In this document: piece after piece, positions 43,860 to 50,500 of the stretch
How positions within the stretch are numbered: the stretch's first letter is position 1
How the letters are laid out: every line of letters starts with the position of its first letter
From: an uncultured Selenomonadales bacterium
Lineage (GTDB): Bacteria > Bacillota > Negativicutes > Selenomonadales > Selenomonadaceae
Assembly (NCBI GenBank): GCA_947165295.1
Contig: CAMUZU010000001.1
Span: 1 to 64,000 of the forward strand
DNA: 64,000 nt
Direction of reading: 5' to 3'
The notes under the pieces: generated by a model
What the model saw: the letters and a program-made list of their open reading frames with translations, nothing else
Told to the model about the DNA's origin: nothing
Databases searched by the model: none
Program-made: the position numbers and the translations under genes

Positions 43860-44510
43860 TTGGCAGACATAATCCCGCTGTTGACCAAAGCACTCGGCGA
43901 AACAATTTACATGGTCGTCGTGTCAATGGCTATCGCGTCGGCAATCGGCGTGCCGCTGGGAGTTTTGTTGCACACGACGGCGAAAGGTCAGATACTCGAA
44001 AACGTCATCATCAATCAAACGGTCGGCTCGGTCGTCAACGCCGTGCGCTCGATACCGTTTATAATCTTGATGGTTGCAATTATCCCGTTGACGCGCTTGC
44101 TTGTCGGCTCGGCAATCGGCACCACGGCGGCTATCGTCCCGCTGGTTATCGCGTCGATACCGTTTATCGGGCGGCAAGTCGAAACGTCGCTTAAAGAAGT
44201 CCCCGCAGGTCTCGTCGAAGCGGCTGAAGCAATGGGCGCAACTCCCGCGCAGATTATCACACGTGTTCTGTTGCCCGAAGCAATGCCCGGTATCGTCGCG
44301 CAGTTGACCACGGTAATTATCGCGCTCGTCGGCGAATCGGCAATGGCGGGCGCAATCGGCGGCGGCGGTCTCGGCGACTTGGCAATTCGTTACGGCTATC
44401 AACGGTTCCGCCCCGAAGTCATGTTGGCAACCGTCGTCGTGCTGATTGTTTTGGTTCAGCTCGTGCAACTTGCGGGCAACACGCTGGCGAAGCGTCTCGA
44501 CAAAAGATGA
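43860..44510 (+). CDS. metI: Methionine ABC importer permease
   Basis: 216 residues from a TTG at 43860 after GCAGGTGA. It has five hydrophobic segments and the coupling motif EAAEAMGATPAQIITRVLLPEAMP of binding-protein-dependent permeases. ETIYMVVVSMAIASAIGVPLG at the N-terminus and IGGGGLGDLAIRYGYQRF near the C-terminus are typical for MetI. Its stop overlaps the next gene's start by 4 bp (ATGA). Confidence 0.9.
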   Translation: MADIIPLLTKALGETIYMVVVSMAIASAIGVPLGVLLHTTAKGQILENVIINQTVGSVVNAVRSIPFIILMVAIIPLTRLLVGSAIGTTAAIVPLVIASIPFIGRQVETSLKEVPAGLVEAAEAMGATPAQIITRVLLPEAMPGIVAQLTTVIIALVGESAMAGAIGGGGLGDLAIRYGYQRFRPEVMLATVVVLIVLVQLVQLAGNTLAKRLDKR

Positions 44511-46186
44511 ACGCGCTGATTGATTGGACGAATTTTCCGCCCGACGTGATCGAAATTCTTTTGCGCGACTTCAACGGCGGCAGAAAAATTTTTGACGGCG
44601 ACATTGCAAACGTTGTCCCGCGTGCCCGAAAGTCCGCCGACGAAAAATCTGCGCGCACGCGTTCAATCGCCGAAGTCTTCACGCCGCCGCACGTCGTCAA
44701 GTTCATGGTCGACGCCGCACTTGTCGACAGCCCGATTGATTCGCGCTGGATTGAAATTGCTTGCGGGGAAGCGCCGTTTATCACCACGCGATACGACGCG
44801 GAGTCGGGCGAAGCAATTCCCGTCACCGAACGCGTCGGAATTCTCGACAGGAAACTTCGCGCATGTCCCGCCAACGTCGACAAGTTCACGTGGGCGACGC
44901 AAGCCGTTCAAAGCGTCTACGGCTACGAACTGCAGGGCGACAGTCTTTTAATTGCGCGGGCGAACGTCCTTTTGACCGCCGCCGAATTCGTCAACGACAT
45001 CAAGCCCGACGAACTGCGCGAACTTGCCGAAATTGTCGCTCGGAACTTTTGGCAAATGGACGGGCTCAATCCGCCGCAAGCTCAGGCGTCACTCTTCGAC
45101 AACGGCAACGACTGCCGAATCACCGATTGGCGCACGGGCGACGAAATTTTTTTCACGGGAGGTATCGCAATGAAGTTCGACGTTTTAATCAGCAACCCGC
45201 CGTATCAAGAAATCAAGGACGACAACGGTCGACAGCCGCCGATTTATCATCACTTCTTGCAGGAAGCTCCGAAGGTCGCCGAAAAGTCCGTGCTTATTAC
45301 GCCCGCAAGATTTTTGTTTGACGCGGGACAGACGCCCAAAAGTTTTAATCGCCGAATGCTCAACGACCCGCACTTCAAGGTTTTGCATTACGAACCGAAC
45401 GCCGGCAAACTTTTCCGCGACGCTGTCGAAATCAAAGGCGGCGTGGCAATTACGCTTTACGACACGACAAAAAATTTCGGCGCGATTGGCATGTTCACCG
45501 AGTTTGAAGAACTCAATTCGATTCATCGTAAAGTTTGCGTCGAAAATACGAAGTTTCGTTCGCTCAAAGAAATTGTTCGCACGCCCGTCGCTTACAGGTT
45601 GTCGGAAAAATTTTTCGCCGAACGCGCAGATTTAATCGACAGACTTCAAGACGCCGCGCTTCGGACAAACATTTTTGAACGCTTGCCCGAAGTTTTCATC
45701 GACGACGAGCCGCACGACGGACGCGAATACGTTCAGATTTTGGGACGCTTGAACAATCAGCGCGTTTACAAATTCATTCGCCGCGATTATGTAACGGACG
45801 ACAACTTAATCGCACGCGTGAAAATTTTTCTGAACGAAGCCAACGGCACGGGAGCTTTCGGCGAAACGTTGACTGAACCGTTTATCGCCGACGCGGGAGT
45901 CGGCTGCACGCAAACATTTATCACGATTGGCGCGTTCGACACTCGCGACGAAGCCGAAGCTTGCCTGACTTACATCAAGTCGAAGTTTGCCCGCGCAATG
46001 CTCGGTATCTTGAAGGCGACGCAACACAATCCGCCTGCGACATGGGCGAAAGTTCCGCTGCAAGACTTCACGTCGGGCGGTGACATTGATTGGCGCGCAG
46101 GTGTCGACGAACAGCTTTATCGCAAGTACGGTCTGAGCGCGGCGGAAGTTGACTTCATCGAGTCGCACGTCAAGGCAATGGATTGA
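44507..46186 (+). CDS. Eco57I-like DNA methylase / restriction-modification protein
   Basis: 559 residues. It belongs to the Eco57I-type adenine methyltransferase group: an unusual motif I region (WIEIACGEAPFITTRYD), IYGYE-type motif (VYGYELQGDSLLIARANVL), the catalytic NPPY at 230-233, and a C-terminal target-recognition part. No separate restriction gene is adjacent, and no PD-(D/E)xK site is obvious, so it may be a methylase without partner or a remnant of a larger system. Its ATG overlaps the metI stop (ATGA), linking it to methionine uptake, and metK lies downstream. Confidence 0.83.
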   Translation: MNALIDWTNFPPDVIEILLRDFNGGRKIFDGDIANVVPRARKSADEKSARTRSIAEVFTPPHVVKFMVDAALVDSPIDSRWIEIACGEAPFITTRYDAESGEAIPVTERVGILDRKLRACPANVDKFTWATQAVQSVYGYELQGDSLLIARANVLLTAAEFVNDIKPDELRELAEIVARNFWQMDGLNPPQAQASLFDNGNDCRITDWRTGDEIFFTGGIAMKFDVLISNPPYQEIKDDNGRQPPIYHHFLQEAPKVAEKSVLITPARFLFDAGQTPKSFNRRMLNDPHFKVLHYEPNAGKLFRDAVEIKGGVAITLYDTTKNFGAIGMFTEFEELNSIHRKVCVENTKFRSLKEIVRTPVAYRLSEKFFAERADLIDRLQDAALRTNIFERLPEVFIDDEPHDGREYVQILGRLNNQRVYKFIRRDYVTDDNLIARVKIFLNEANGTGAFGETLTEPFIADAGVGCTQTFITIGAFDTRDEAEACLTYIKSKFARAMLGILKATQHNPPATWAKVPLQDFTSGGDIDWRAGVDEQLYRKYGLSAAEVDFIESHVKAMD

Positions 46187-46189
46187 CGC

Positions 46190-46218
46190 TTGCAAAAAGT
46201 TTCACGCCGTGATAAACT
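46190..46218 (+). promoter_or_regulatory. Putative promoter of the antisense antitoxin RNA
   Basis: TTGCAA (46190-46195), 17 bp spacer, TAAACT (46213-46218). Transcription would start near 46225, run through the two short repeats at 46246-46271 and end at the hairpin 46277-46303. Confidence 0.5.
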
Positions 46219-46224
46219 GCAAAC

Positions 46225-46303
46225 ATCCAAGATTGATAACCACATACAAGGTAGTCACGGAAACGTACAACAAAAAGAACCCCGAGTTCGCACCTCGGGG
46301 TTC
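46225..46303 (+). ncRNA. Candidate antitoxin RNA (RNA II-like)
   Basis: Predicted 80-nt plus-strand RNA. It holds ACAAGGTAGTCACGG (46246-46260) and AACGTACAAC (46262-46271). The same two words occur at 46445-46459 and 46493-46502, inside the toxin transcription unit, which is made from the other strand. The RNA would therefore pair with the toxin mRNA at its first nucleotides and over the GTG start codon, and share the terminator hairpin. This is the arrangement of the pAD1 par locus. Existence of the RNA is inferred. Confidence 0.55.
46272..46303 (-). terminator. Shared terminator of the candidate toxin-antitoxin locus
   Basis: 10-bp stem GAACCCCGAG / CTCGGGGTTC (46277-46286 and 46294-46303) with a 7-nt loop. 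On the minus strand it is followed by TTTTTG. On the plus strand the T tail is weak. Confidence 0.8.
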
Positions 46304-46361
46304 AAACGCTTTATGGGCGATTATTCGTTTTTCGGGGTAACGATAACCACCGGGCTGTCTG

Positions 46362-46457
46362 TTATCTGTTCCGCTTGTCCAGCCACTTGCAAACGAAGTA
46401 CAGAGCGACGCCCGACACAACGTTTGCTGCGACAGTCACGAGAAACAAGGTAGTCAC
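46362..46457 (-). CDS. 31-residue membrane peptide, candidate Fst-like type I toxin
   Basis: GTG at 46457 with AAAGGAGGTGA 6 bp upstream; TAA at 46362-46364. The peptide is a single hydrophobic helix (LFLVTVAANVVSGVALYFV) ending in the charged tail CKWLDKRNR, resembling the one-helix plus W-L-x-x-R tail of Fst/Ldr-family toxins. It has its own promoter (TTGTCA, 17 bp, TAAAAT) and terminator. Such toxins damage membranes when made in excess and are held off by an antisense RNA. It lies between the methylase and metK, opposite to both. Confidence 0.7.
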   Translation of the reverse strand: MTTLFLVTVAANVVSGVALYFVCKWLDKRNR

Positions 46458-46508
46458 GGTATTCACCTCCTTTTGGTCTACAAGAAGTGAACAACGTACA
46501 ACGCGCTT

Positions 46509-46537
46509 ATTTTAGCGAAAAGTTTTTCCCGTGACAA
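46509..46537 (-). promoter_or_regulatory. Promoter of the small membrane peptide
   Basis: On the minus strand TTGTCA (46532-46537), 17 bp spacer, TAAAAT (46509-46514). The mRNA would begin near 46502, so the repeat GTTGTACGTT is at its very 5' end. Confidence 0.7.
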
Positions 46538-50333: not shown

Positions 50334-50409
50334 TGGTGCTCGCTGAGAGACTCGAACCCCCGACCTCCTCCATGTGACGGAGATGCTCTACCAACTGAGC
50401 TAAGCGAGC
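50334..50409 (-). tRNA. tRNA-Val (anticodon CAC)
   Basis: 76 nt. The acceptor GCTCGCT pairs with AGCGAGC; the D arm is GCTC/GAGC, the anticodon loop GTCACAT gives CAC, and the T loop is TTCGAGT. The CCA end is encoded. Confidence 0.93.
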
Positions 50410-50423
50410 CGCCTAAAAAAAAT

Positions 50424-50500
50424 TGGTGGGGCTGACAGAACTCGAATCTGTGACCTCCTCGATGTCAACGAGGCACTCTAACCATCTGAGCTACAACCCC
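50424..50500 (-). tRNA. tRNA-Val (anticodon GAC)
   Basis: 77 nt. The acceptor GGGGTTG pairs with CAGCCCC, the anticodon stem CCTCG/CGAGG encloses loop TTGACAT giving GAC, and the T loop is TTCGAGT. CCA is encoded. It lies 14 bp from the other tRNA-Val and is probably co-transcribed. Confidence 0.93.

What the first reader, a model, noticed from the sequence alone, without database searches (positions are those of the whole stretch)
46190..46537. Candidate Fst/par-like type I toxin-antitoxin locus between a DNA methylase and metK
The sequence shows a 31-codon gene for a one-helix peptide with a CKWLDKRNR tail, a strong Shine-Dalgarno, its own promoter (TTGTCA-17-TAAAAT) and a hairpin terminator. 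On the other strand a promoter (TTGCAA-17-TAAACT) faces it from the far side of the hairpin. Two words, ACAAGGTAGTCACGG and AACGTACAAC, occur as direct repeats at 46246-46271 and at 46445-46459/46493-46502. Because the two RNAs run in opposite directions, the short RNA would pair with the toxin mRNA exactly at its 5' end and its start codon. Converging RNAs, two direct repeats and a shared terminator are the hallmark of the pAD1 par (Fst) locus. I know of no such description in this lineage.
Basis: partly seen in the sequence, partly recalled or inferred. Interest (0 to 1): 0.88.

Follow-up and report, generated by a model that had tools for sequence, protein, structure and literature searches.

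The report
Toxin–antisense-RNA pair behind DNA methylase
A rumen bacterium carries a tiny membrane-toxin gene that is probably silenced by a small antisense RNA, and in this genus such pairs sit repeatedly at the end of DNA-methylation (restriction–modification) genes, which suggests that they may help to keep those genes in the genome.

Summary
On the minus strand, 46457-46362 encodes a 31-aa one-helix peptide above NCBIfam's curated cut-off for Fst toxins (31.3 vs 26 bits). Promoters face each other, a hairpin lies between, and two words are repeated so that a small plus-strand RNA (RNA II) would pair with the toxin mRNA's 5' end and start codon. In 47 related loci the repeats co-vary: each toxin mRNA matches its own RNA II far better than others' (14.7 vs 9.8 of 18 positions; 0 of 5000 permutations; controls flat). 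The Fst/par reading is well supported; expression and toxicity are untested.

The new part is the setting. In the genus (Quinella-like Selenomonadaceae), for 21 of 30 best toxin loci the first larger gene on the RNA II side is a restriction–modification gene of one of three families, often with the RNA II promoter 3 nt from, or overlapping, its stop codon. No such family was listed for 35 neighbours outside the genus. Five related methylase genes keep RNA II and hairpin without an intact toxin, two at the same metK junction. Most likely: an Fst module coupled to DNA methyltransferase genes, perhaps guarding them.

The parts
44507..46186 (+). Eco57I-type DNA methyltransferase gene (559 aa); stop codon 46184-46186
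   Evidence: PF07669 63.3 bits vs cut-off 25.3; PADLOC MTase_II / type IIG
46190..46218 (+). Putative RNA II (antitoxin) promoter TTGCAA-17-TAAACT; -35 begins 3 nt after the methylase stop codon
   Evidence: read from sequence; motif and distance in relatives
46225..46303 (+). Putative antitoxin RNA II (5' end inferred; 3' end uncertain because no T-tract follows the hairpin on this strand)
   Evidence: fold z = -3.98 for 46225-46315; own-locus repeat match in relatives
46246..46260 (+). DRb, RNA II copy (complementary to the toxin start region)
46262..46271 (+). DRa, RNA II copy (complementary to the inferred 5' end of the toxin mRNA)
46277..46303 (.). Hairpin between the two transcription units; intrinsic terminator for the toxin mRNA (minus), stem-loop shared with RNA II (plus)
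46362..46457 (-). Fst-family toxin peptide gene (31 aa, GTG start)
   Evidence: NF033608 31.3 bits
46445..46459 (-). DRb, toxin mRNA copy, covers the GTG start codon
46460..46493 (-). 5' stem-loop of the toxin mRNA that pairs the Shine-Dalgarno
   Evidence: fold; SD unpaired probability 0.006 against 0.209 for shuffled leaders, 1 of 60 as low
46493..46502 (-). DRa, toxin mRNA copy at the inferred 5' end
46509..46537 (-). Toxin mRNA (RNA I) promoter TTGTCA-17-TAAAAT

Best explanation
This is an Fst/par-type (type I) toxin-antitoxin module placed directly at the 3' end of a DNA methyltransferase gene. The minus-strand mRNA (RNA I) encodes a 31-aa membrane peptide and masks its own Shine-Dalgarno in a 5' stem-loop. 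A short plus-strand RNA (RNA II) starts just behind the methylase stop codon, crosses copies of the two direct repeats, and ends in or after the hairpin. Its two repeat segments pair with the 5' end and start codon of RNA I, and the complementary hairpins give a further contact, so translation is blocked. Loss of RNA II, by loss of the locus or shut-off of transcription, would free RNA I for translation and the peptide would damage the membrane. Because no terminator lies between the methylase stop and the RNA II promoter (3 nt), methylase transcripts that read through would also carry the antitoxin sequence. Shown here: the sequence anatomy, family membership of the peptide, co-variation of the repeats, SD masking (by fold), and the recurrent link to restriction-modification genes. 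Inferred: expression, toxicity, translation block, read-through, any guard role.
For: NF033608 hit above cut-off. Repeats co-vary in 47 loci: DRb 14.74 of 18 within against 9.79 between, 0 of 5000 permutations, own partner best or tied in 44 of 47; codons 2-5 alone 9.19 against 6.93 of 12, 0 of 5000, best or tied in 35 of 47; DRa 7.87 against 6.25 of 10 in 46 loci, 0 of 5000, best or tied in 27 of 46; control regions 2149 and 509 of 5000. Cognate duplex -34.3 against -18.2 kcal/mol in 46 loci, cognate strictly best for 37 of 46 mRNAs; window -36.0 against -30.3 for the best non-cognate. SD less accessible than with shuffled leaders in 46 loci (0.080 vs 0.253, Wilcoxon p 1.3e-7; below the own 10th percentile in 31 of 46). 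Promoters enriched on both sides (37 and 25 of 46 at 9/12 or better, shuffles 4%). Loci that keep RNA II and hairpin but have lost or broken the toxin fit a toxin that is the costly half.
Against: No expression or toxicity data. The RNA II promoter is below the strict scan, and 21 of 46 related loci stay below 9/12 there. No T-tract for RNA II in the window, and in only 5 of 46 loci. The U-turn motif that matters in pAD1 is absent from the toxin-RNA loop here (18 of 46 loci have it). The TM motif is NXXXG rather than the published P/D/S/TXXXG; several relatives have DXXXG. A simple count of SD-pairing stem length was unremarkable (6 of 46 loci above their own 95th percentile). Only 5 of 15 aligned peptides, window included, reach E 0.01 for NF033608. 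In one tandem array (L147) a cross pair (-34.1) is as strong as the cognate ones.
Confidence: 0.85

Rival explanations
1. The module is a dedicated guard (addiction element) of the DNA methyltransferase / R-M gene: the antitoxin promoter is merged with the end of the methylase gene, so deletion or silencing of the gene removes the antitoxin and a longer-lived toxin mRNA is translated. It would be a type I counterpart of CreTA, which guards CRISPR-Cas.
For: In 21 of 30 genus loci chosen by toxin alone, the first ORF of 150 aa or more on the RNA II side is an R-M gene, in some with further copies of the module between; three R-M families (Eco57I-type, N6_Mtase+Methylase_S type IIG, EcoRI-type methylase); same orientation; of 19 array-end toxins measured, 13 have the stop codon within 8 nt of, or overlapping, the RNA II -35, two of them with a doubtful promoter match; R-M genes with Fst modules on both sides (L205, L207); no R-M family among those listed for 35 neighbours outside the genus.
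Against: Only 23 of 72 examined methylase 3' ends have a module. Nine of the 30 best loci do not have an R-M gene as that first neighbour. RNA II has its own promoter. Linkage can reflect co-transfer. Five methylases kept RNA II without an intact toxin and still have the gene.
Confidence: 0.35
2. Back-up abortive infection: when a phage escapes restriction and shuts off host transcription, the short RNA II decays first and the longer-lived toxin mRNA kills or stalls the cell.
For: Co-location with R-M genes; of 49 related methylases without the module, 7 have MNT-like genes (part of another TA kind) within 300 nt downstream by clustering (the name is my reading); Wadjet JetC-like proteins beside Fst loci in 2 of 35 neighbours outside the genus.
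Against: No phage data; RNA stabilities unknown.
Confidence: 0.2
3. Passenger: a selfish Fst element that inserts or is retained behind genes in defence islands, without functional coupling.
For: Tandem arrays and other contexts (flagellin; NadE-like and porin-like genes by my reading); Fst loci outside the genus sit next to diverse genes.
Against: Near-constant stop-to-promoter spacing and fixed orientation across R-M families.
Confidence: 0.35
4. The peptide is a benign small membrane protein whose synthesis is tuned by an antisense RNA.
For: No toxicity test; chromosomal Fst/Ldr loci lack a known deletion phenotype (PMC7472228, passages).
Against: Family membership; loci with the toxin deleted or broken but RNA II kept.
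Confidence: 0.12

Closest known systems
par locus of pAD1 (Fst / RNA I / RNA II), Enterococcus faecalis
   Same: Convergent promoters, hairpin between them, two direct repeats giving complementarity over the translation start, SD-masking 5' stem-loop, short TM peptide with a charged tail (PMC7472228, passages)
   Different: Chromosomal, behind DNA methyltransferase genes; RNA II side of the hairpin lacks a T-tract; no U-turn in the RNA I loop; NXXXG instead of PXXXG
fst-Sm/srSm of Streptococcus mutans
   Same: Chromosomal, convergent, repeats over the start codon (PMC3543317, passages)
   Different: Different neighbours (a COG2856 protease gene is named); no R-M link in the passages read
Streptococcus pneumoniae/mitis-type Fst loci with DXXXG (L078, L079, L082-L092)
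   Same: Best-scoring peptides from outside the Selenomonad records (50-54% identity); start-codon repeats (for example L078) and tandem copies
   Different: The nearest larger gene on the RNA II side is a 501-aa gene
CreTA, RNA guard of CRISPR-Cas
   Same: TA module bound to a defence locus (PMC9458426, abstract)
   Different: CreTA is repressed by Cascade at transcription; here antisense RNA on mRNA, and the guard role is unproven
tvrAT (Phd-Doc type) in the pneumococcal tvr R-M locus
   Same: TA genes inside an R-M locus (PMC6265443, passages)
   Different: Protein antitoxin; that study found mainly suppression of excision, and no clear addiction
symE-symR of E. coli
   Same: Type I TA (PMC3874152, passages); its place beside hsd/R-M genes is recalled, not from a call
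   Different: Antisense RNA overlaps the 5' part of the toxin mRNA; different toxin

Membership tests
Fst/par type I TA | Toxin matches the curated Fst profile | tested here: met
   NF033608 31.3 bits, cut-off 26; 5 of 15 aligned peptides match at E 0.01
Fst/par type I TA | Conserved Trp between TM helix and charged tail | tested here: met
   KWLD invariant in 15 of 15 aligned peptides
Fst/par type I TA | P/D/S/TXXXG motif in the TM segment ('majority' of toxins per PMC7472228) | tested here: inconclusive
   NXXXG in the window; DXXXG in several relatives
Fst/par type I TA | Convergent promoters | tested here: met
   By sequence only
Fst/par type I TA | Bidirectional intrinsic terminator | tested here: inconclusive
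   Hairpin met; T-tract RNA I side 46 of 46, RNA II side 5 of 46; small second hairpins on the RNA II strand are near shuffled energies
Fst/par type I TA | Direct repeats DRa/DRb giving complementarity between the two RNAs over the translation start | tested here: met
Fst/par type I TA | 5' stem-loop masking the SD | tested here: met
   by folding only (the simpler stem-length test was weak)
Fst/par type I TA | U-turn (YUNR) in the toxin-RNA loop (not universal per PMC7472228, so not defining for all homologues) | tested here: not met
   Toxin-RNA loop GUGCGAA lacks it; RNA II loop UUCGCAC contains one (loops)
Fst/par type I TA | Toxicity relieved by RNA II; two short RNAs expressed | not testable with these tools
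   needs expression data
Guard module of a defence locus (CreTA-like by function) | Stable physical linkage to the defence locus | tested here: inconclusive
   21 of 30 toxin loci next to R-M, but only 23 of 72 methylase ends carry a module
Guard module of a defence locus (CreTA-like by function) | Loss of the defence gene releases the toxin | not testable with these tools
   needs deletion experiment

The most novel reading that the evidence does not exclude
A type I toxin-antitoxin module that serves as a plug-in guard of DNA methyltransferase / restriction-modification genes: the antitoxin RNA is encoded as the immediate 3' continuation of the methylase gene, its promoter merged with the stop codon, so that loss or silencing of the methylase unleashes a membrane toxin. 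In this genus the same design has been attached to at least three different R-M families.
Probability: 0.3. Interest if true: 0.8.

Novelty: new variant of a known kind. Interest (0 to 1): 0.62.

Why it matters
The function of chromosomal Fst modules is an open question (PMC7472228, passages). A genus in which they sit in a near-constant position behind R-M genes, with co-varying RNA pairs in tandem and with relics that kept only the antitoxin half, gives a concrete and testable answer: protection of a defence or methylation locus. The 47-locus co-variation set is also a natural experiment on how antisense pairs stay specific beside near-identical neighbours.

Tried and rejected
Chance repeats: rejected. 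Known RNA family: only two tRNAs in the window reach Rfam gathering scores. Pfam: nothing above cut-off for the peptide (best E 0.03). Plasmids and phages: 3 plasmid and 2 satellite-phage records, best E 0.3 or weaker. Solved structures: LdrD at E 0.25, not significant. NF033608 in 60 genomes: over the cut-off only in the window's own genome, so that model is too narrow here and I used an own profile. Intact toxins behind 49 further methylases: 0 of 49 at E 0.01 within about 1 kb. MetK as a conserved partner: among loci fetched up, metK lay in the 1.5-2.5 kb flanks of the own genome only; two relic loci found later share it. Second RNA II terminator: small hairpins downstream average -2.5 against -2.0 kcal/mol for shuffles. 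Structure prediction was not run; for a 31-aa peptide I judged it not decisive.

Rows dropped: one search kept 79 of 97 toxins with a perfect stem of at least 7. I assigned 48 of these by hand to the genus-like set (genomes of the genus plus records titled Quinella, Selenomonadaceae or Selenomonadales); L166+831 (degenerate) was dropped, leaving 47; one with a short leader was dropped (46) and for DRa. In the outside set six Selenomonad-titled loci were left out beforehand (L080, L097, L101, L112, L120, L126; L097 and L120 do touch R-M genes); 57 were tried, 47 had a neighbour ORF of at least 150 aa within 1.3 kb, and 35 were scanned (12 near-identical Streptococcus ones left out). Of 30 in the genus sample 27 had such an ORF and were scanned. 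Of 73 methylase 3' ends one (G000:C22, at a contig end) was not examined. Loci are related, so counts are not independent; permutation counts are not phylogeny-corrected, but without coupling within- and between-locus matches should be equal. One search's promoter pattern misplaces the site in some loci (for example L144, L165).

Full report
WHAT IS THERE. The minus strand at 46457-46362 encodes VTTLFLVTVAANVVSGVALYFVCKWLDKRNR behind a strong Shine-Dalgarno. A promoter TTGTCA-17-TAAAAT lies at 46537-46509. On the plus strand TTGCAA-17-TAAACT lies at 46190-46218. Between the two transcription units lies a hairpin with perfect 10-nt arms, 46277-46303. Two words occur twice as direct repeats: 46246-46260 with 46445-46459 and 46262-46271 with 46493-46502; the first word occurs nowhere else in the 64 kb, even with two mismatches. 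The repeat copies on the RNA II side would make an RNA that is complementary to the toxin mRNA at its inferred 5' end and over its GTG start codon.

WHAT IT BELONGS TO. The peptide scores 31.3 bits against NF033608 (type I toxin-antitoxin system Fst family toxin), cut-off 26. Pfam has no match above cut-off and Rfam none here. The window is therefore from a Quinella-like Selenomonadaceae, class Negativicutes (the class name is recalled). With an alignment of 15 peptides, relatives are found in 51 of 66 genomes of the genus at E 0.01 and in 101 of 300 genomes of the class at E 1e-4, 28 of 97 genera, own genome included. NF033608 itself is over its cut-off in 1 of 60 genomes, the window's own. 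A Megamonas plasmid peptide is already named Fst.

DOES THE PAIRING HOLD UP? I collected 97 distinct toxin ORFs, 79 with a hairpin, 48 of them in the genus-like set, 47 after one degenerate copy was dropped. For each I compared the 18 bases around the toxin start with the RNA II region of its own locus and of all others. Within loci 14.74 of 18 match, between loci 9.79; 0 of 5000 permutations reach the observed mean; the own partner is best or tied in 44 of 47. Codons 2-5 alone: 9.19 against 6.93 of 12, 0 of 5000. DRa in 46 loci: 7.87 against 6.25 of 10, 0 of 5000, own best or tied in 27 of 46. Two control regions show no clear difference (2149 and 509 of 5000). Predicted duplexes in 46 loci average -34.3 kcal/mol for cognate and -18.2 for non-cognate pairs; in tandem arrays most cross pairs are much weaker than cognate ones, with exceptions (one of -34.1 in L147, as strong as its cognate pairs, and one of -29.1 in L006). 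The toxin leader hides the Shine-Dalgarno (unpaired 0.080 against 0.253 for shuffled leaders in 46 loci), although a plain stem-length count was weak.

THE SETTING. The methylase upstream (PF07669) is not an accident of this window. I took the best toxin hit of each of 30 genomes (L141-L170, chosen by toxin score alone) and asked for the first ORF of at least 150 aa on the RNA II side. It was an R-M gene in 21 of 30: 16 Eco57I-type, 4 with N6_Mtase plus Methylase_S (type IIG), 1 EcoRI-type methylase (families). In several of these the best toxin is an inner member of an array, with further modules before the gene (for example L145, L152, L156). In L155 an MNT-like gene comes first, and the end of an Eco57I-type gene lies about 1.26 kb away. 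In L169 an R-M gene lies on the other side. The other seven (L141, L143, L154, L159, L162, L168, L170) matched none of my eight R-M and MNT query proteins in the flanks held. The R-M gene runs convergent to the toxin, that is in the direction of RNA II. One search measured the distance from its stop codon to the RNA II -35 for 29 toxins: 10 are inner array members; of the other 19, six have 3 nt (window, L147, L064, L161, L156, L021), three overlap (L011, L067, L160), two have 4-5 nt (L166, L066), two 7-8 nt with a doubtful promoter match (L076, L165), and six lie 14-239 nt away or were misplaced by the pattern (L007, L144, L002, L062, L012, L008). Some type IIG genes carry modules at both ends (L205, L207). 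For contrast, 35 neighbours of Fst loci outside the genus show no R-M family among the 25 listed of 58 Pfam and the 25 listed of 42 PADLOC families; an unlisted family matches at most one member.

THE REVERSE COUNT AND RELICS. Of 73 methylase 3' ends found with the window protein in 66 genomes, 72 were examined: 23 have a toxin within about 0.6 kb downstream (coordinates) and 49 do not. Of these 49, five keep an RNA II-like promoter and the hairpin: L242, L248, L258, L277 without a toxin, and L241 with a broken remnant; L283 is a doubtful sixth. L242 and L248 lie between methylase and metK as in the window. Loss of the toxin with retention of RNA II is what a harmful peptide would lead to, and suggests that RNA II is a separate unit. 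Seven of the 49 have an MNT-like gene within 300 nt downstream, some followed by a HEPN-like gene (clusters; the MNT and HEPN names are my reading of the sequences); two more look the same by eye.

HOW IT MOST LIKELY WORKS. Shown: anatomy, family, co-variation, SD masking by fold, linkage. Inferred: RNA II, initiated at the methylase end and possibly also made by read-through from it, represses toxin translation; when RNA II is lost the peptide is made and perturbs the membrane. Whether this guards the methylase, acts as a back-up to restriction, or is a passenger cannot be decided here; I give the guard reading about one third.

LITERATURE. I searched the held library for Fst with its layout terms, Fst with Selenomonas, type I TA with Negativicutes, Quinella with toxin-antitoxin, and type I TA or antitoxin RNA with R-M terms. 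No title or abstract start in these listings describes an Fst module bound to R-M genes; two searches listed 10 of 12 and 8 of 40 papers, and subscription papers are mostly not held. Seen: passages of PMC7472228, PMC3543317, PMC3874152, PMC12548467 and PMC6265443 and the abstract and outline of PMC9458426.

VERDICT. A well-supported Fst/par-type locus, in a variant setting (coupled to DNA methyltransferase genes) that I did not find described in these searches. Interest 0.62.

Noticed in passing
L290 (G000:C72), toxin about 728-803 minus: A second toxin of the same genome follows a 1232-aa gene related to the N6_Mtase+Methylase_S type IIG genes, about 239 nt apart and co-directional; a 10-base repeat of the start region lies 132 nt upstream, so this subfamily (also L097, L169, L184) has a different layout.
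   Followed up: partly
L247, L249, L250, L261, L269, L277, L286 (and by eye L252, L284): MNT-like nucleotidyltransferase genes, some followed by a HEPN-like gene, stand close behind related methylases that lack an intact Fst module (names by my reading).
   Followed up: partly
L206, L294, L072, L035: A second recurrent context of these toxins: beside an outer-membrane-porin-like gene, in some with a MinD-like gene on the other side (names recalled from sequence, not from a search).
   Followed up: no
Fst loci outside the genus, alignment A3: Wadjet JetC-like proteins are the RNA II-side neighbour in 2 of 35 loci, and trypsin/PDZ proteases in 3 of 35.
   Followed up: no
window 46342-46350 and 46235-46243: A third repeated word, GATAACCAC, occurs in RNA II and in the region antisense to the toxin mRNA's 3' untranslated part; its surroundings (CGTTTT...AACGATAACCA) recur in many relatives.
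   Followed up: partly
L205, L198, L193, L076, L078, L081: Tandem arrays of two or more Fst-type modules.
   Followed up: partly
window 50337-50500 minus: Two adjacent tRNA genes.
   Followed up: no
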